A DNA stretch of 7,331 nucleotides, taken from an uncultured Bacilli bacterium (GTDB lineage Bacteria > Bacillota_I > Bacilli_A > RF39 > UBA660). The notes under the pieces are model-generated. The model worked only from the letters and a program-made list of their open reading frames with translations. It was not told where the DNA came from and ran no database searches. The position numbers were made by a program, and so were the translations under genes. The stretch is taken from contig CALVKC010000056.1 in the NCBI GenBank assembly GCA_944332505.1, forward strand, positions 1 through 7,331, given 5' to 3'. Positions within the stretch are counted from its first letter, which is position 1; each line of letters opens with the position of its first letter. This document shows, one piece after another, positions 28 to 7,045 of this stretch.

Positions 28-1206
28 ATGGATAAAGATAAATATAAAGTAAAAATATCAACTGAGGCATCACACGAAACAAAAAAGGGTATATATAAAA
101 AATATATTATTGCTGGAATAATTATATTATCAATAATAATAGGAACAATAATTTATTTTTATAGGGATAATAAATATAAAGAAGCAATTAATTACATTAA
201 TAATCATGAATATGATAAAGCATATAAGATTTTAGAAGATTTAGGAGGTTCTAAGGCAACTAAAAAATTAAAAGAAAATAAATATGCAAGAGCAAAAGAA
301 TATTTAGAAAAAGATGACCAAGTATCTGCAATAATTTTATTCAATGAGATTAAAGGTTATGAAGATAGTAAAAAACTAATTGATGAAATAGTAAAAGAAA
401 AAGAATATTTAAAAGTATTTGTATCTGAAATAAATGATGAGGTTATAATTGGTGAATATGAGCAAGATAACAATTTAGAAAATGGAAAAGAACCAATAGA
501 ATGGATCATTATTGACAAAGATGATGATAAATATACATTAATTAGTAAATATGTATTAGATGTTAAAAAGTATGGCTATGAGGATAAATATGATCAACTT
601 GTTTATTGGATAAAATCAAATTTTGCTCAAAATAGTTTTAATGAAAAAGAATTAAAAATAATATATGATGTTAAATTATTATCAAGTTATGATGTTAATC
701 ATGCAGTAAGTAATGGATTTAATGCTAATTATTTAAAGACAAATTTAACTAACTATGCTTTATCAAAAGAAATATATAAAATATATACGAATGATGGTAT
801 TTATACATGGTGGCTAGAGGATAAAGATGCATATAGTGATGCAAAGCAGTATTACACAAATACAGATACTCCTTATTATGTTAATACTGGATTAAGTAAA
901 ATGAGTTGTGGTAGGGCAGTAATGAACGGTGTAAGACCTGTAATTATACTTTCTAAAGATGGCAATTATATAATTAAAGAATATAGTATTAATTCTGATA
1001 AATTAGAAGAAATTGAAACAAAATCTTCAACAAGTTCGCAATCTAGTTCATCATCATCTAGAACTAGAGATAATAGTTATAATGGTTATTCGTATGAGGA
1101 AAGAAAAAATCAATGTAGTAAAACATGGGGAAATAGTTGGAGATGCACAATCCAAAAAAGATATAATTGCACAGGAATTGGATATTCTGGATATTCTGGG
1201 TGTTAG
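28..1206 (+). CDS. Membrane-anchored TPR-like/DUF6273 protein with Cys-containing C-terminal tip (paralogue 1)
   Basis: This 392-residue protein has no known function. Residues 1-25 are lysine-rich, 26-45 form one membrane helix, and 50-127 hold TPR-like helical repeats including the G-Y-E-D-S repeat end (110-114). Residues about 139-308 resemble DUF6273: an opening GEYEQDNN (142-149), I-E-W, a WW pair (261-262) and a closing N-G-V-R-P-V-I. The positive-inside rule puts the bulk outside the cell. A linker at 331-347 is nearly all serine, and the tip carries C363, C373, C381 and the terminal C392. The start is supported by paralogy: gene 2 begins with the same M-D-K-x-K-Y-x-V pattern. Relative to gene 2 it has one repeat fewer and a degenerate domain core, with WWLED where WW-x-R-S is expected, so any ligand-binding role may be changed or lost. 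The DUF6273 call rests on recalled family motifs, not a search. Confidence 0.8.
   Translation: MDKDKYKVKISTEASHETKKGIYKKYIIAGIIILSIIIGTIIYFYRDNKYKEAINYINNHEYDKAYKILEDLGGSKATKKLKENKYARAKEYLEKDDQVSAIILFNEIKGYEDSKKLIDEIVKEKEYLKVFVSEINDEVIIGEYEQDNNLENGKEPIEWIIIDKDDDKYTLISKYVLDVKKYGYEDKYDQLVYWIKSNFAQNSFNEKELKIIYDVKLLSSYDVNHAVSNGFNANYLKTNLTNYALSKEIYKIYTNDGIYTWWLEDKDAYSDAKQYYTNTDTPYYVNTGLSKMSCGRAVMNGVRPVIILSKDGNYIIKEYSINSDKLEEIETKSSTSSQSSSSSSRTRDNSYNGYSYEERKNQCSKTWGNSWRCTIQKRYNCTGIGYSGYSGC
451..506 (+). repeat. 56-bp exact repeat, copy A (in gene 1)
   Basis: These 56 bases are identical to 1750-1805 in gene 2, including every silent position. They encode the opening of the DUF6273-like domain, from GEYEQDNN to IEW. 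The bases on both sides differ between the copies (T at 450 against A at 1749; C at 507 against T at 1806), and the surrounding coding sequence is strongly diverged. Confidence 0.95.
1018..1203 (+). other. Serine linker and four-cysteine tip of gene 1
   Basis: Residues 331-392 begin with a low-complexity serine stretch (331-347) and continue into a tail rich in Gly, Tyr, Asn and Trp. Its four cysteines have spacing C-x9-C-x7-C-x10-C, the last being the final residue of the protein. Only one other cysteine (C294) occurs in the preceding 362 residues. The even number and the predicted extracytoplasmic position fit disulfide bonding, but this is inferred. Confidence 0.7.
1180..1197 (+). repeat. 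Tandem 9-bp duplication in the gene 1 tip
   Basis: The unit GGATATTCT occurs twice in direct succession and encodes Gly-Tyr-Ser-Gly-Tyr-Ser just before the terminal Gly-Cys. It is in frame, so gain or loss of a unit would change the last cysteine spacing by three residues without a frameshift. Confidence 0.9.
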
Positions 1207-1210
1207 GAGG
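1205..1210 (+). promoter_or_regulatory. Ribosome binding site of gene 2, overlapping the gene 1 stop
   Basis: A perfect AGGAGG lies five bases before the ATG at 1216. Its first two bases are the last two of the TAG stop of gene 1, so ribosomes ending gene 1 sit on the gene 2 initiation site. Confidence 0.9.
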
Positions 1211-1215
1211 TTTTT

Positions 1216-2511
1216 ATGGATAAGAACAAATATCAGGTAGATGAAAACATATCTAAAAAACAATTATCAACTAAAAGAAAATCAAAATTTCTAAAATTAG
1301 GTGTTATTTTTGTAATATTTTTAGTAATTATTGGAACTATATTCTTAAATAACTTGAGTATTAATAACAAAATAAAACAAGCAGATGATTATATTGAAAA
1401 TAATGAATGCAATAAAGCTAGTGAGATATATAAAGAAATAAATAAAGAATCAAAATATCTAAGCAAAGTTCAAGAATGCAATTACAAAAATGCAAAAACA
1501 TTTTTAGAAAATAAAGATTATGAAAATGCATACAAATTATTCTTAGAGATTAAAGACTATAAAGATTCAGATAAGTATTATCTAGAGGCATATTATGATC
1601 AAGCAAAATTATTTATTGAAAATAAAGAATATTATAAAGCTATAAATATGTTATTTAATATTACGGATTATGAAGATAGTAGGACATTATTAAATGATTC
1701 AAAATATAATCTTCTAAAAAATGCTAATGTTGGAGATATTGTATATTTAGGTGAATATGAGCAAGATAACAATTTAGAAAATGGAAAAGAACCAATAGAA
1801 TGGATTGTTTTAGGAAAAGACAATGATGATTTATTATTAATTTCACGATATATATTGAAAAAGATGAGATTTGGTAGCACTTATTTATGGGAAAAGAGTG
1901 AAGTAAGAGAATGGCTTAATAATGAATTCTATAATGAATCTTTTAATGAAAAAGAACTTAAATATATTCAAAAAATGATTACATCGAATAATACTCAAGA
2001 TATGGTTTTTTGTTTAAGTTCCGAAGAAGCTAGATTGTTTTTTGAATCAGACAAAGATAGGATTGCAGAACCTACACAAAAATTGATTGATGATGGATTT
2101 AAATTATCTTCTAATAATGCTGGAAATTGGTGGACAAGATCTGTTAGTAGAGCAAGTAATGGTAAGGGTGTTGTTCCAGTAGAAAGTAATGGTAATGTTA
2201 GAAGTGCTGGAACAAATGAATTAGCACCAGCAGAATATACATATGTAGATATTGGTGTTAGGCCATCAATCTCAATTAATATAAATTCAACATCATCAGA
2301 AGCAAAAAATATGGTTATCTATGGTCATGATTCAAATACAGGACTTGATAATGAACCAAATGTAAGAAGTAGTAATAGTGGTTCTTCTAGTTCATCATCA
2401 GGAACAAATACAAGAAAATCATGTAATGGAGGAGTTGGATGTAGATCAGGTTGGCATCCATGTAATCCTAATTCAAGAACTGGATATTGTGCAAGTTGTT
2501 GTAAAAATTAA
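1216..2511 (+). CDS. Membrane-anchored TPR-like/DUF6273 protein with six-Cys C-terminal tip (paralogue 2)
   Basis: This 431-residue paralogue of gene 1 is nine bases downstream of it. Residues 1-25 are lysine-rich, about 26-46 form one membrane helix, and 53-168 contain TPR-like repeats ending in D-Y-K-D-S (114-118) and D-Y-E-D-S (151-155), one unit more than gene 1. Residues about 178-355 look like an intact DUF6273 domain: GEYEQDNN, I-E-W-I-V-L, W-L-N-N-E-F (233-238), N-W-W-T-R-S (304-309) and D-I-G-V-R-P. The WW-x-R-S plus G-V-R-P pattern recalls the ends of formylglycine-generating-enzyme/C-type-lectin-like folds, so a ligand-binding role outside the cell is possible; this is inference. 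A serine linker (384-396) leads to a tail with C403, C409, C416, C425, C428 and C429. No catalytic site is visible. It probably acts with its neighbours at the cell surface. Confidence 0.85.
   Translation: MDKNKYQVDENISKKQLSTKRKSKFLKLGVIFVIFLVIIGTIFLNNLSINNKIKQADDYIENNECNKASEIYKEINKESKYLSKVQECNYKNAKTFLENKDYENAYKLFLEIKDYKDSDKYYLEAYYDQAKLFIENKEYYKAINMLFNITDYEDSRTLLNDSKYNLLKNANVGDIVYLGEYEQDNNLENGKEPIEWIVLGKDNDDLLLISRYILKKMRFGSTYLWEKSEVREWLNNEFYNESFNEKELKYIQKMITSNNTQDMVFCLSSEEARLFFESDKDRIAEPTQKLIDDGFKLSSNNAGNWWTRSVSRASNGKGVVPVESNGNVRSAGTNELAPAEYTYVDIGVRPSISININSTSSEAKNMVIYGHDSNTGLDNEPNVRSSNSGSSSSSSGTNTRKSCNGGVGCRSGWHPCNPNSRTGYCASCCKN
1750..1805 (+). repeat. 56-bp exact repeat, copy B (in gene 2)
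   Basis: Identical partner of 451-506, in the same domain position and reading frame. The copies lie 1,299 bases apart in direct orientation, so recombination between them would produce a gene 1/gene 2 chimera in frame. Confidence 0.95.
2365..2508 (+). other. Serine linker and six-cysteine tip of gene 2
   Basis: Residues 384-431 run from a Ser/Gly/Asn linker into a tail with six cysteines in 27 residues, spaced C-x5-C-x6-C-x8-C-x2-C-C. The linker shares the 15-base string TCTAGTTCATCATCA with gene 1 (2386-2400 and 1042-1056), but the tips beyond it show no clear alignment. The compact six-cysteine pattern resembles small disulfide-rich peptides in general; I cannot assign it to a known peptide family. 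Confidence 0.7.
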
Positions 2512-2521
2512 ATAAAGTAAT

Positions 2522-2528
2522 AGGAGGT
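2522..2528 (+). promoter_or_regulatory. Ribosome binding site of gene 3
   Basis: AGGAGGT is five bases before the ATG at 2534, in the 22-base gap after gene 2. This is the strongest ribosome site in the window and fixes the start of gene 3. Confidence 0.9.
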
Positions 2529-2533
2529 ATAAT

Positions 2534-3001
2534 ATGACTATAATTGCAATGTTATTAATGATATTTGGTATTGGCTTGTTTGTATATGAATTTGGTGCCA
2601 AAAAAGGCAAAAGTAAAAATTTTATAAATCTTTTGGTTGGCGGATTGTTACTTATTGGTTCAATGTTAATTGGAATAGGAGGAAATCCTGCTTCTGATAT
2701 GCCAAATGGAAGCAAAGAAATGGTTATATTTGGTTTTGCTTTATCAATAATTGGAATAATAATACTATCCTTGAAAACTAACTTTAAAAATAAAATATAC
2801 TATATGATTCCATTATCTATAATAATTGTATTGGTTATAATATGCTTTCTTGTAATTAGAAATTGGAATGTTCATCCGACTTCAAGCAGTTCTACAGGTA
2901 ATGGCTGTTACCCAAATAGACCATATTATGTTTGTAAAGACGTAAAAAGAAGAGATGGCACTACTTACCAACAATGTAGATGCCAAGCGTGGAGGGATTA
3001 A
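2534..3001 (+). CDS. Small four-helix membrane protein with serine linker and Cys-rich tip
   Basis: I do not recognise this 155-residue protein. Hydrophobic segments at about 2-20, 30-50, 63-80 and 89-108 should cross the membrane. The loops at 21-29 and 81-87 are lysine-rich and the loop at 51-62 is not, which predicts both ends outside the cell. After helix 4 comes a short linker T-S-S-S-S-T-G (116-122) and a tail with C125, C134, C148 and C150. Apart from that tail it is unrelated in sequence to genes 1 and 2, so the shared ending looks like a common functional element rather than simple paralogy. It sits 22 bases after gene 2, and its last codons carry the ribosome site of gene 4. It could be a membrane partner of the two DUF6273 proteins or an assembly factor; nothing in the sequence decides this. 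Confidence 0.8.
   Translation: MTIIAMLLMIFGIGLFVYEFGAKKGKSKNFINLLVGGLLLIGSMLIGIGGNPASDMPNGSKEMVIFGFALSIIGIIILSLKTNFKNKIYYMIPLSIIIVLVIICFLVIRNWNVHPTSSSSTGNGCYPNRPYYVCKDVKRRDGTTYQQCRCQAWRD
2879..2998 (+). other. Serine linker and four-cysteine tip of gene 3
   Basis: Residues 116-155 form a short serine linker and a basic, aromatic tail with spacing C-x8-C-x13-C-x-C. The only other cysteine in the protein (C104) lies in the fourth membrane helix. Topology from charged loops places the tail outside the membrane, the same side as the tips of genes 1 and 2. Confidence 0.65.
2991..2995 (+). promoter_or_regulatory. Ribosome binding site of gene 4, inside gene 3
   Basis: GGAGG lies six bases before the ATG at 3002, within the final codons of gene 3. 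The gene 3 stop TAA (2999-3001) is followed immediately by the gene 4 ATG, which suggests translational coupling between the membrane protein and the large cytoplasmic protein. Confidence 0.85.
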
Positions 3002-5950
3002 ATGAAAGATTTAGATGAAAGAATATATGAATTATTAGAGAGTAAAAAAGGAAGTCTATCAATTAATGAAATATCAGAATCTATTTCTGATTCAACAAAA
3101 CAAGATATTACTAGAAAATTATTAGAAATGAACAGACAAGGAATTGTTTACAAAAAAATTAAAGAAGGAAAAGCATATTATTCCATAAATTCAAAAGATG
3201 GTGAAGGTAGAAATGCTTCTCAAGAAAATATAAATAATATTAATAAAGTATTTGCTGCATTTGGAAATAAACAAGCTTTGAATGATATGGGAGTATTTAA
3301 TAAAATAGAAAATGAATTAGGAATAGATGAAAATTCTAACATACTGGAAGATGTTGAAGTTTTTAATAAATTAAAAATTGATTTTATAGATTTTGATTTA
3401 TCAAAATTAGAATATAAAAAAAATATATTTTTTGAAAATGAAACATATAAAATGAGTATTCCAGATTCATTCAAATATTTACCTAATGAGGAAGATAGAG
3501 ATTTTATTGCTTATTTACCTAAAACTGGATTGTTTGAAAAAATGCCATACAATGAAGGTGGAGCAAATATTATTATTTATTCATCGACTTTAATTCCTTT
3601 TTCTGATAATAAGGCAAGAATTGAAGAAACAAAAAGAATGTTGTATGATATAGTTTTTTGGAATGGCGGTTACATCATGTTTGAAAGATATGGTGGTAAA
3701 CCAGAATATAAAGCAGTAGATTTAAAAAGTGGTCGAACAGGTGTTATCTACATGAAATTTGATACAGCTCACAATTTTTATTTTACTTGTTGTTTAAAAA
3801 ATGGATTTAAACAAATGAGAATTGTAATTGATGGAATAAATGGATCAAAGGAAGACCTTGAACAAATAGCAATATCTTTAATGAATAAATTTGAAGTAAA
3901 AGAAGATTTGAGTGATTTTAAAGAATTAAATGATGAAATGTATTTATCAAATAGTATTGATAATAAATTAATAGAAAAATGGGTAACAAACATTAAAGGA
4001 ATACACTCTAGTTTAAATGAATACTTCAAAATATTTACTAAATTAGAATCATTAAAAATTAATGTTATGAATTCAAAAGGAACTTTTAATATTGTTAAAT
4101 TTAAAAGTGAAATAAGAGAAGAATTAAAAAAATATTCATTAATGATAGATAAACATATTAAAAATGGAGAGGAATTTATTAATCATATTGAAAATTTAGA
4201 TGTTGATAAAAAAATATTAATTCCGGCTTATTATAGTTATTATAAATTCTTAGATCAAAAAGAATTTACTATTAATCTTGATGATGGATCTGCTATTACT
4301 CAAAAAGTAGATTTAGCTGAGAAAACACAAAATAAAATATTTAATAAAGAAATCTTAAAGATGATATCAAATTATAGTGATAAAGATTATAAAGAATCAG
4401 ATGAAAATGATGATAACATTGATGAAGTAAACAATGAATTAAAGGAATATTGTGATGATTTTATAAAACAAGCAAGAAAGAATTTAAAAAGATTAAGAAG
4501 TGATTGGGAATTTACTGAAGATGAATATCAAAAAGGATTAAATAGTAAAGTAATAGAATCAGAATATGAATTAAAATGGGAAATAAAAAATATAAAGCAA
4601 GCCGCTCGTGCTTTTGGACATAAATATGATGATTTTTTAACTGAACTAGATGTAGAAGGTAAGAAATTGTTGAAACAAGGTGCTGATTATTTATTTATTG
4701 ATGAAATTAATAAAATAATAAAAGATGTTTTTGATGCTTTTTCTGATCTTCATCTATCTTTTAATACACATGGCTCTGCATATTGGGATTTAGGAACATT
4801 TGATTATGATATTCCAGATGAATTAAATGATATTAAATATTGGTGGAAAAGAGAGTATGAGAAAAACCCAACAGTAATTAAAATGAAAGAAAAAGAACTA
4901 AAAGCTAGGGAAGAAAAAGAATTACGAAAAAAAGAAAAAAATGATGAATTATTATCAATTTTATCAAGTGATTTGCAAAAAGAAAAAAATAAATATAAAA
5001 AAGAAATCACAGAAATACAAGATGAATTGAATTCTGCCAAACAAGAAATAAAACTAGAAATAGAGGAACAACAAAAGAAAGAAATTAAACAATTAACTGA
5101 TGATAAAAATGATATAATTAGTGATTTAAAAAAGAATCTTGAATTATTAAAGAAAGAAAATAAACAAAAAGAAGAAGAATTATCAACTTTAGGTTTTATG
5201 AAGTTTATGCAAAAAGATAAATTAAAAACTGAAATTGATATAAATAATCAAAATATTGAAAAATATAATGAACAAATAAAAAATGTTGACAAAGATTTTA
5301 ATAAAGAATATGAAAATATAGTTAATAAATTTGAAAAAGATAGTTCAAATAGAATAGAATTACTAGAAAAAACTTTTAAAATGCCACTTGAACCAGAAAA
5401 AGTTATTGAAAAGGTATCAAATATATTATCATCATCTTCTAAATTACCAACTGATAATAGTCCATATATTACTTCTATTCAAAAAGAAAATAATAGAATT
5501 ATGGAAATTATTTATGAACAAATTGTTGATTTTGCTAGACCAGTAACAATTCCTGAATTAATGAATAGTAATGATGATTTAGGAAATTGTTCTAATCAAA
5601 AAATTAGTGCATTATTAAAAAGAATGACAGATTCTAAATGCCTTATTAAAGTAATTGACAAAGGAAAGAGTTATTTTAGTGTAGGTGAAGAAGATTTTAA
5701 TAATTCTTTTATAGATAATAAAACTTCAAGTGATGGATTGATAGATAAAAATAATAAAAATTCATATTCGAAGGATAGATATAAAATTTATAAATTATTA
5801 GAATCTGAAGAAAATATTGATCCATTGAAATTTGAAAAAAATAAAGAATTGAGTAAATTGCGATTATATCAACTATTATTTTCTTTGGAGTCTGATGGAT
5901 TAGCATTAAAAAGAATAACTGATAGTGGAATTATTTTTTATAAAAGGTAG
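3002..5950 (+). CDS. Large coiled-coil protein with three winged-helix-like modules
   Basis: This 982-residue protein has no signal peptide or membrane helix and should be cytoplasmic. Residues 4-63 read as a winged helix ending in a wing strand G-K-A-Y-Y-S-I. Residues about 138-298 look beta-rich, with Y-K-M-S-I-P-D-x-F (149-157) weakly recalling PsbP/Mog1-like domains. Residues 306-560 are mostly helical, followed by an aromatic patch (591-617). About 620-790 is a Lys/Glu coiled coil broken by L-G-F-M-K-F (730-735), then a short serine run (810-813). Two more winged-helix-like modules follow at about 828-893 (ending G-K-S-Y-F-S-V) and 923-981 (ending I-I-F-Y-K-R). A DNA- or protein-binding scaffold is plausible. 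No Walker motif, nuclease or protease signature is visible, so it is not an SMC-type ATPase. Its start abuts the gene 3 stop. I recall similar coiled-coil plus winged-helix proteins in gut Firmicutes but know no function. Confidence 0.8.
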   Translation: MKDLDERIYELLESKKGSLSINEISESISDSTKQDITRKLLEMNRQGIVYKKIKEGKAYYSINSKDGEGRNASQENINNINKVFAAFGNKQALNDMGVFNKIENELGIDENSNILEDVEVFNKLKIDFIDFDLSKLEYKKNIFFENETYKMSIPDSFKYLPNEEDRDFIAYLPKTGLFEKMPYNEGGANIIIYSSTLIPFSDNKARIEETKRMLYDIVFWNGGYIMFERYGGKPEYKAVDLKSGRTGVIYMKFDTAHNFYFTCCLKNGFKQMRIVIDGINGSKEDLEQIAISLMNKFEVKEDLSDFKELNDEMYLSNSIDNKLIEKWVTNIKGIHSSLNEYFKIFTKLESLKINVMNSKGTFNIVKFKSEIREELKKYSLMIDKHIKNGEEFINHIENLDVDKKILIPAYYSYYKFLDQKEFTINLDDGSAITQKVDLAEKTQNKIFNKEILKMISNYSDKDYKESDENDDNIDEVNNELKEYCDDFIKQARKNLKRLRSDWEFTEDEYQKGLNSKVIESEYELKWEIKNIKQAARAFGHKYDDFLTELDVEGKKLLKQGADYLFIDEINKIIKDVFDAFSDLHLSFNTHGSAYWDLGTFDYDIPDELNDIKYWWKREYEKNPTVIKMKEKELKAREEKELRKKEKNDELLSILSSDLQKEKNKYKKEITEIQDELNSAKQEIKLEIEEQQKKEIKQLTDDKNDIISDLKKNLELLKKENKQKEEELSTLGFMKFMQKDKLKTEIDINNQNIEKYNEQIKNVDKDFNKEYENIVNKFEKDSSNRIELLEKTFKMPLEPEKVIEKVSNILSSSSKLPTDNSPYITSIQKENNRIMEIIYEQIVDFARPVTIPELMNSNDDLGNCSNQKISALLKRMTDSKCLIKVIDKGKSYFSVGEEDFNNSFIDNKTSSDGLIDKNNKNSYSKDRYKIYKLLESEENIDPLKFEKNKELSKLRLYQLLFSLESDGLALKRITDSGIIFYKR

Positions 5951-5959: not shown

Positions 5960-7045
5960 ATGAAATCGGTTGTTGAATTAAAAAATGACTTGTTTCGCCT
6001 TGGAAACGACTTAAATTCCGATTGGTATTATTTAGAAACTAAAGATAAAATTGGTAAAAAATTTTATTCATATGATTCTTCAACTAATACTATGATATTA
6101 CTAGTTGAAGTTCAAGGAACTCAGTATGAAGGAAGAAATACAAGAATAGAAGATTTATTAATTAATGATAAAGTGACAATAAAAAGAGAACCAAATAATG
6201 AATATAACAGTTTAAATTTAGCAGTAGAAAATAAAGACAATAAATCATTAGGAAATTTATCTGCTGATATTTGCGATGTATTAAGTCCATTGATTGATAA
6301 AGATATTATTATAATTGATGATGCAAGTGTTGAATTTGTTGAACCATTATCAAAACGAAGTGCAAAATGTAAAAAATCTTTATTGACTATAAAACTAATA
6401 CTTCATTTTAAAGAACAAATTATAAATTCAGAGCATAGTTCATTAATATGTTTATTGGGTGGAGATCAAACAAGAACTTGGGCTCAAGAATTGTCTATAA
6501 TTAAATGTTCAATTCCATTAAATGAAGCTAAACTTTTATTTGAAATATATAATAGATATTGTGATGAATATAATAACGATAGTTTGAACTATTTTGGATT
6601 AGATAATTTAGCTGATGAAGTTATTTATGCTCGACAAAAAATGAAAAATGAAAAAATTACTGGATTATCATATGACAGATTATATGATGCTGATAATTTA
6701 ATTGATTATATGAAAATAATTATTGATAAAGAAGCTGAAAGATATGGCCAATTAAAAAACTATATTCCTTGTGATGAGGAAGTATATGATGATTATTATT
6801 CTCTAAAAGATTTAATATATGCAAACGCTATAGATGAAAATAAATATTATTGGTTTGATCAATGTAGAGTTGATAAAGATGAATATGAATATCATACTGG
6901 TTGTGAATTTAATCATTGGTATGAAATTGTTGAATTATATGATCCTAGTCAAGAATTACCATTTGATTTATCAGATGAGGATATAGTATCTATATTTGGA
7001 TTTAAAAAATTTGAATCATTTGGAGATTTGTCATATGGATGTTAA
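5960..7045 (+). CDS. HIRAN domain protein with acidic C-terminal region
   Basis: This 361-residue soluble protein has a HIRAN domain at about 46-150. Visible hallmarks are V-x-G-T-x-Y-E-G-R (51-59), the basic strand K-V-T-I-K-R-E-P, the N-x-Y-x-x-x-N-L-A-V block (80-89), and L-G-N-L followed by a helix and 'LSPLID'. In characterised relatives such as HLTF, HIRAN binds 3' ends of single-stranded DNA. Bacterial stand-alone members are little studied, so DNA-end recognition is a family-based inference. The usual Asp after the Tyr of the N-x-Y-D block is Asn (N83) here. Residues about 160-361 match nothing I know; they are rich in Tyr, Asp and Glu and contain no visible catalytic motif or membrane segment. 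The protein ends in Gly-Cys. The gene follows gene 4 after nine bases and overlaps gene 6 by 11 bases, so it probably works with both. Confidence 0.85.
   Translation: MKSVVELKNDLFRLGNDLNSDWYYLETKDKIGKKFYSYDSSTNTMILLVEVQGTQYEGRNTRIEDLLINDKVTIKREPNNEYNSLNLAVENKDNKSLGNLSADICDVLSPLIDKDIIIIDDASVEFVEPLSKRSAKCKKSLLTIKLILHFKEQIINSEHSSLICLLGGDQTRTWAQELSIIKCSIPLNEAKLLFEIYNRYCDEYNNDSLNYFGLDNLADEVIYARQKMKNEKITGLSYDRLYDADNLIDYMKIIIDKEAERYGQLKNYIPCDEEVYDDYYSLKDLIYANAIDENKYYWFDQCRVDKDEYEYHTGCEFNHWYEIVELYDPSQELPFDLSDEDIVSIFGFKKFESFGDLSYGC
7022..7025 (+). promoter_or_regulatory. Ribosome binding site of gene 6, inside gene 5
   Basis: GGAG lies nine bases before the ATG at 7035. It favours that ATG over the in-frame TTG at 6996, which would add 13 residues and has no good ribosome site just upstream. 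Confidence 0.6.

What the first reader, a model, noticed from the sequence alone, without database searches (positions are those of the whole stretch)
1018..2998. Three adjacent membrane proteins share a serine-linker plus cysteine-rich tip design
Genes 1, 2 and 3 each end in a serine-rich linker and a short tail with 4, 6 and 4 cysteines, although gene 3 has an unrelated four-helix body. Cysteine is rare elsewhere in these proteins (1, 3 and 1). Charge patterns around the membrane helices place all three tails outside the cell. The tips do not align with each other, which suggests interchangeable disulfide-stabilised heads on common anchors: possibly surface binding modules, displayed peptides, or tails that cross-link into one complex. 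I know of no described system of this kind.
Basis: partly seen in the sequence, partly recalled or inferred. Interest (0 to 1): 0.7.

Follow-up and report, generated by a model that had tools for sequence, protein, structure and literature searches.

The report
Swappable cysteine heads on surface proteins
Three neighbouring membrane proteins of an AT-rich bacterium each end in a flexible linker and a small conserved cysteine-rich head, and in relatives of two of them different heads sit on the same kind of protein body, so these look like exchangeable surface modules whose targets are unknown.

Summary
Genes 1, 2 and 3 end in a Ser-containing linker plus a tip with 4, 6 and 4 cysteines, against 1, 3 and 1 elsewhere. 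The tips are real units: their cysteines are invariant in the relatives that share the same tip.

Of 42 close gene-1/gene-2 homologues, 38 carry one of four tip types. Tip type does not follow the body: gene 2's tip occurs in two separate body clades (AU p 1.5e-7). The commonest tip is a DnaJ-like CxxCxGxG motif, often on predicted lipoproteins. So "disulfide" is not established; DsbA-type and DsbB proteins were found in 0 of 18 genomes of the genus.

Best reading: exchangeable extracellular binding heads on lectin-fold anchors. The anatomy is well supported; ligand and function are inferred.

The parts
28..1206 (+). gene 1: type II membrane protein, helical repeats + DUF6273-like domain + Ser linker + tip type A (392 aa)
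   Evidence: ORF; paralogue of gene 2, 37% identity over 267 columns; no Pfam DUF6273 hit of its own but homologues P0014 and P0015 hit PF19789 above cut-off
103..159 (+). gene 1 membrane anchor (residues 26-44)
   Evidence: hydropathy
964..1113 (+). gene 1 Ser-rich linker (residues 313-362)
   Evidence: composition; 52% identity to P0009 against 80% for the domain before it
1114..1203 (+). gene 1 tip type A, 4 Cys (residues 363-392)
   Evidence: 90% identity to P0009; 4 of 4 Cys kept there
1216..2511 (+). gene 2: type II membrane protein, TPR-like stalk + DUF6273 + Ser linker + tip type B (431 aa)
   Evidence: ORF; PF19789 E 1.3e-13; model pLDDT 86, pTM 0.76
1291..1347 (+). gene 2 membrane anchor (residues 26-44)
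   Evidence: hydropathy; helix 10-61 in model
1366..1731 (+). gene 2 TPR-like helical stalk (residues 51-172)
   Evidence: helices in model; TPR chains in the PDB by sequence profile and by fold
1720..2301 (+). gene 2 DUF6273 domain (residues 169-362)
2302..2421 (+). gene 2 Ser-rich linker (residues 363-402)
   Evidence: composition; pLDDT under 50 at 384-408
2422..2508 (+). gene 2 tip type B, 6 Cys and an invariant His (residues 403-431)
   Evidence: 6 of 6 Cys and the His invariant in 6 proteins; 66-76% identity to four relatives
2534..3001 (+). gene 3: four-helix membrane protein with Cys tip (155 aa)
   Evidence: ORF; 7 database matches, one of them 99% identical; model pLDDT 77
2861..2905 (+). 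gene 3 linker (residues 110-124)
   Evidence: pLDDT under 50 at 114-124
2906..2998 (+). gene 3 tip, 4 Cys, predicted two-strand hairpin (residues 125-155)
   Evidence: 4 of 4 Cys invariant in 8 sequences, two of which are the window's gene and a 99% copy; strands 131-138 and 144-151
451..506 (+). 56-nt stretch identical to 1750-1805 in gene 2
   Evidence: longest exact match of genes 1 and 2; lies where the gene 1/gene 2 fusion proteins P0011-P0013 change over
1750..1805 (+). second copy of the identical 56-nt stretch

Best explanation
Genes 1 and 2 are paralogous surface proteins. Each has an N-terminal membrane anchor, a helical TPR-like stalk and a DUF6273 (C-type-lectin-fold) domain, followed by a flexible Ser-rich linker and a small cysteine-built head. 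Gene 3 puts a head of the same general design on an unrelated four-helix anchor. In the gene 1/gene 2 family the head is an exchangeable module: across relatives the same body carries different heads and the same head rides on different bodies, with the joint at or near the linker. Most likely the heads work outside the cell as compact docking or binding knobs, each for a different partner (a surface ligand, or another protein of the envelope), and the linker lets them reach it. Shown here by computation: anatomy, conservation, exchange. Inferred: extracellular display in this organism, binding function. Open: whether the cysteines hold a metal or form disulfides.
For: Cys clusters beyond chance. 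Tip Cys invariant within tip types A (2 sequences apart from a near-copy), B (6 proteins) and gene 3. In gene 1 against P0009 the tip is 90% identical, the linker 52%, the domain before it 80%; in gene 2 against P0130 and P0215 the tip is 76% and 66% against 55% and 33% for the domain. 38 of 42 close homologues carry one of four tip types, against 3 of 180 further listed hits (2 type D, 1 type B) (the lists were capped at 120 of 140 and 120 of 394; the 42 include near-copies P0008 and P0023 of the window's genes and the fusions P0011-P0013). Body tree of 30 rows: type B on two body clades, 3 changes forced by starred branches, AU p 1.5e-7; type D likewise on both, 2 changes forced, AU p 8.8e-46. 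Lipobox-like N-termini in 18 of 28 type D relatives. Fold match of DUF6273, DUF6273 phage proteins among the best matches in the viral library (rank 1, E 1.2e-6), and the published C-type-lectin assignment (passages of PMC10743442).
Against: No ligand, no experiment. AlphaFold2 gives most of the gene 2 tip a pLDDT under 50, so no fold is predicted for it; the gene 1 tip was not modelled. Gene 3 shows no exchange: all 8 sequences have the same tip. For genes 2 and 3 the tip is not consistently more conserved than the body (P0128 tip 72%, domain 79%; P0129 69%, 70%; P0002 tip 68%, body 70%; P0004 61%, 61%). Tip type is still clustered on the body tree (6 changes against a shuffled mean of 11.4), so exchange is occasional. 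No relative of the whole three-gene set could be found, so the co-occurrence of genes 1-3 rests on one locus.
Confidence: 0.6

Rival explanations
1. The tips are extracellular metal (zinc or iron) knuckles, used for metal sensing, scavenging or metal-dependent docking, not disulfide knobs.
For: Type D tips, the commonest (26 of 42 close homologues), carry two CxxCxGxG motifs. The 8 type D tips that I scanned, of 28, all hit Pfam's DnaJ zinc domain weakly (best E 3.7e-5; first member 15.3 bits, cut-off 32.7), and their profile hits a DnaJ chain in the PDB (E 0.0029, below repeat-driven WD40 matches). Type D occurs on gene-1-like bodies too (P0014-P0016). Thioredoxin_4 (DsbA-type) and DsbB found in 0 of 18 genomes of the genus, while 9 and 6 of 14 controls ring. 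Obligate anaerobes tend to exclude cysteines from exported proteins (passage of PMC12453122).
Against: Tips of genes 1, 2 and 3 contain no CxxCxGxG motif; profile comparisons of tips B, A and gene 3 with type D are empty (1.7%, 1.4%, 0.1%). Gene 3's modelled hairpin puts C134 opposite C148 (my reading). Type B resembles part of a peptide called Toxin CgNa in the PDB (2h9x, E 0.0036), a disulfide-rich peptide as I recall. Only 5 of the 18 genomes are at least 90% complete and at most 5% contaminated, and other oxidant families were not searched.
Confidence: 0.4
2. The three proteins form one envelope complex, and the tips are its docking or cross-linking contacts.
For: Consecutive genes on one strand with gaps of 9 and 22 nt, and gene 4 directly after gene 3; no terminator-like site (though shuffles give only 0.8 on average); similar tail design in unrelated bodies.
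Confidence: 0.25
3. The DUF6273 domains are hypervariable receptors diversified by a diversity-generating retroelement, and the tips are secondary.
For: DUF6273 is a known target domain of such elements in phages (passages of PMC10743442 and PMC11792537); this genome has such an element.
Against: The element's template does not match genes 1 or 2 above shuffled controls (scores 18 and 18; shuffled means 18.3 and 18.6). The end of DUF6273 in gene 2 is the best conserved part of the alignment of 37 sequences (mean 0.64).
Confidence: 0.05
4. The exchange pattern is an artefact of metagenome assembly or of fragmentary proteins.
For: P0011-P0013 are gene 1/gene 2 fusions that change over at the identical 56-nt stretch and are known from one contig each, which short-read assembly could produce. 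P0010 and P0215 are each known from one short contig of 3.2 and 2.1 kb.
Against: P0011-P0013 were not used in the tree. P0010's tip is 78% identical to gene 2's and P0215's 66%, so neither is a stray copy of it. A gene-1-like body with a type D tip (P0015) is known from 14 contigs, the longest 384 kb.
Confidence: 0.1

Closest known systems
[quoted passage not shown]
   Different: Here it sits on a TPR-like stalk with a membrane anchor and carries a C-terminal Cys tip; it is not a target of the one retroelement template found in the genome.
TPR-DUF6273 proteins with CxxCxGxG tails, such as P0141 (named from a Lachnospiraceae genome)
   Same: Same order: N-terminal anchor, helical repeats, DUF6273, Ser/Gly linker, Cys tip.
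   Different: Anchor is often a lipobox-like signal; the tip is DnaJ-like instead of type A or B.
DnaJ CXXCXGXG zinc domain (PF00684)
   Same: Motif of the type D tips in relatives, by weak profile hits.
   Different: No hit for any of the window's three tips; DnaJ itself is cytoplasmic (recalled).
Toxin CgNa (2h9x), a sea-anemone peptide (organism recalled)
   Same: 23 residues of the type B tip profile align, with 4 Cys in common (E 0.0036). Two of three shuffled-column profiles were searched as controls and gave no match and one at E 1.9.
   Different: Only the end of the peptide aligns, and no Pfam toxin family matches any of 6 type B tips. Taken as chance or convergence, not kinship.

Membership tests
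DUF6273 (PF19789) | profile score above Pfam's cut-off, gene 2 | tested here: met
   51.7 bits, cut-off 23.5
DUF6273 (PF19789) | profile score above Pfam's cut-off, gene 1 | tested here: not met
   no hit at E 0.1; kinship rests on homology to gene 2 and to P0015, which scores 33.0 bits
C-type-lectin fold | fold of the domain | tested here: inconclusive
   model matches 9qa6; Foldseek alone gave no PDB match at E 0.001 or better; the naming as C-type lectin comes from PMC10743442, not from a match here
Target of a diversity-generating retroelement | a variable region matching a template repeat with changes at adenines | tested here: not met
   genes 1 and 2 against the one template found in the genome: no better than shuffles; other templates not searched
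DnaJ CXXCXGXG zinc domain (PF00684) | two or more CxxCxGxG motifs in the window's tips | tested here: not met
   none in tips 1-3 by sequence; no PF00684 hit
Sea-anemone-type toxin peptides | family profile match | tested here: not met
   no toxin family among Pfam hits of 6 type B tips at E 10
Sea-anemone-type toxin peptides | disulfide pairing of the six cysteines | not testable with these tools
   tip modelled mostly at pLDDT under 50
7TMR-DISM_7TM (gene 3) | profile score above cut-off | tested here: not met
   22.6 bits, cut-off 29

The most novel reading that the evidence does not exclude
A modular surface-display system, in bacteria whose named relatives are Clostridia: small Cys-built heads, some zinc-knuckle-like and some not, are plugged by recombination at Ser-rich linkers onto lectin-fold anchors and even onto an unrelated four-helix anchor, so that one operon presents several different heads.
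Probability: 0.35. Interest if true: 0.65.

Novelty: new variant of a known kind. Interest (0 to 1): 0.5.

Why it matters
DUF6273 proteins are common in this genus (18 of 18 genomes have matches) and occur in phages, but what they do in bacteria is not known to me. A subfamily that carries an exchangeable, conserved head gives a concrete, testable handle on their function, and extracellular Cys heads in organisms without recognisable DsbA/DsbB are unexpected. In the held library 5 papers mention DUF6273; I saw passages of three of them and only the listing of the other two, and saw no such tails described. Searches by phrase for extracellular zinc ribbons, Ser-linker Cys tails and TPR-DUF6273 proteins gave nothing relevant; they were narrow.

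Tried and rejected
Gene 3 relatives: no locus in viral contigs, species genomes, plasmids or phages. In 291 family genomes 6 matched at E 0.001, the window's own and 5 partial matches at E 1.6e-4 to 8.8e-4, of which I opened only L006, an unrelated protein. In 288 order genomes only the window's own matched at E 1e-4. The genus match L005 (E 0.008) is a helix-turn-helix membrane protein, which I judged unrelated. So the neighbourhood of gene 3 relatives could not be compared.

Type B tip outside DUF6273 proteins: the only locus found, L011, is a 10-residue match that I judged to be chance; none in viral contigs.

Misbinning of the contig: composition resembles 8 other stretches of the genome (GC 0.241 against 0.219-0.268; tetranucleotide distance to them 0.021-0.038 against 0.006-0.035 among themselves, so at the upper end). 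Not excluded. Close relatives of gene 2 are nearly absent from the family: 2 of 291 genomes, the other a fragment on a contig stretch of GC 0.52. A gene-1-like query (P0015) gave the same two of 288 order genomes.

Other profile hits of the tips, all weak: FLYWCH zinc finger for tip 1 (E 0.39) and for 1 of 7 gene 3 tips (E 0.011); several zinc families and, for one tip, Toxin_16 (E 0.021) among the 8 type D tips. Gene 3 and gene 1 tip profiles had no PDB match and one at E 2.2.

One search used a wrong pattern for tip type A; corrected. The tree used 30 rows: genes 1 and 2, P0215, and 27 of the 42 close homologues. Left out of the 42: P0008, P0011-P0013, P0016, P0023 (near-copies, fusions, a fragment) and P0136, P0137, P0140, P0145, P0149, P0151, P0153, P0156, P0158 (other architecture, partial or without a clear tip). 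The type D proteins P0019 and P0163 among the further hits were also left out.

Full report
What is there. The window is nearly the whole of a 7,351-base contig in a 1.28-Mb draft genome. With the starts that I chose, six genes run on the + strand with gaps of 9 nt or less, 22 nt between genes 2 and 3, and an overlap of 14 nt between genes 5 and 6.

Cysteine counts and places are exactly as reported, and the clustering is beyond chance in each gene, least so in gene 3. Hydropathy and charge put the tails outside, weakly for gene 1 taken alone.

The tips are conserved units. Gene 3: all four Cys invariant in 8 sequences, counting the window's gene and its near-copy. Type B (gene 2): six Cys and one His invariant in 6 proteins. 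Type A (gene 1): 90% identity to P0009, more than any other part. The linkers of genes 1 and 2 vary more than the domain before them in all 7 pairs compared. The tip is not always better conserved than the body in genes 2 and 3.

The tips are exchanged. Of 42 close homologues, 26 have type D (two CxxCxGxG motifs), 7 type B, 3 type E, 2 type A, and 4 none of these: one fragment, one extended CxxC tail, two without a tip. These counts include near-copies of the window's genes (P0008, P0023) and the fusions P0011 and P0012. On a tree of 30 bodies, gene-1-like proteins carry types A, B and D, and gene-2-like ones B, D and E (one has none); six changes of tip are needed (least possible 4, shuffled mean 11.4), and one clade for B or for D is rejected. 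The tip types do not align with one another in the pairs compared: B-D, B-gene 3, A-B, A-D, A-gene 3, D-gene 3 (type E was not compared).

A possible route. Genes 1 and 2 share an identical 56-nt stretch (451-506 and 1750-1805). Three database proteins (P0011-P0013) are gene 1/gene 2 fusions that change over there. They may be real deletions or assembly errors; I did not use them as evidence of exchange. P0010, a gene-1-like body with a type B tip, changes over further downstream, at the linker.

Disulfide or metal. For metal: type D motifs, weak DnaJ-domain hits in the 8 type D tips scanned, Thioredoxin_4 and DsbB in 0 of 18 genomes of the genus (draft genomes, and other oxidants were not searched), and the tendency of obligate anaerobes to exclude exported cysteines (PMC12453122, passage). 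That this organism is an anaerobe is inferred from its relatives. For disulfides: no CxxC in tip A or gene 3's tip, and a vicinal CC in tip B; paired strands with C134 facing C148 in gene 3 (my reading); the weak resemblance of type B to part of a peptide that I recall as disulfide-rich (controls). I leave this open.

Distribution. Close relatives of genes 2 and 3 are nearly confined, in the sampled family genomes, to this one, although every one of the 18 genomes of the genus has DUF6273 matches. The set is therefore accessory or mobile, or the contig is misbinned; composition does not decide.

Judgement. The structural claim (real, conserved, exchangeable, most likely extracellular Cys tips on DUF6273 anchors) is well supported. 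That they bind different partners is the most economical reading and is inferred.

Noticed in passing
L027 (window's genome, contig C2:29000-41000): A diversity-generating retroelement: reverse transcriptase (RVT_1, E 9.1e-18), bAvd-like ORF (E 6.1e-7, below cut-off), MutS domain I ORF (E 8e-5, above cut-off), a template at about 4836-4921 and two variable copies at about 561-646 and 1215-1300 in a DUF6273 ORF; 14 of 21 and 15 of 20 mismatches lie at template adenines.
   Followed up: partly
L030 (C36) 874-2571 and L031 (C2) 904-2553: Other DUF6273 proteins of the genome begin like type IV pilins: L030 has PF07963 N_methyl (E 2.4e-6) and two DUF6273 stretches; L031 looks alike by eye but has no N_methyl hit. 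L030 matches the retroelement template above shuffles (36 against a maximum of 26), but only 4 of 9 mismatches are at adenines; L031 does not match (22 against 24). Possibly pilin-type proteins that such an element diversifies; not shown.
   Followed up: partly
window 3002-5950: Gene 4, 982 aa, regulator-like start and a Lys/Glu-rich, probably coiled-coil middle (by eye), no Pfam family; residues 823-895 have a 38% relative elsewhere in the genome.
   Followed up: no
window 5960-7045: Gene 5 with a HIRAN domain and weak similarity to a PADLOC candidate defence family (PDC-M03B, E 1.6e-6, over the HIRAN part).
   Followed up: no
L044 (Aristaeella lactis plasmid): A DUF6273 gene lies between a serine/threonine phosphatase and a protein kinase gene, near FHA and AAA genes; L012 shows an ORF that looks kinase-like by eye beside a DUF6273 fragment.
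   Followed up: no
window 2678-2716 (gene 3 residues 49-61): Gene 3's outer loop is well conserved, with DMPNG invariant in the 8 aligned sequences, so the four-helix part has its own conserved surface feature.
   Followed up: no
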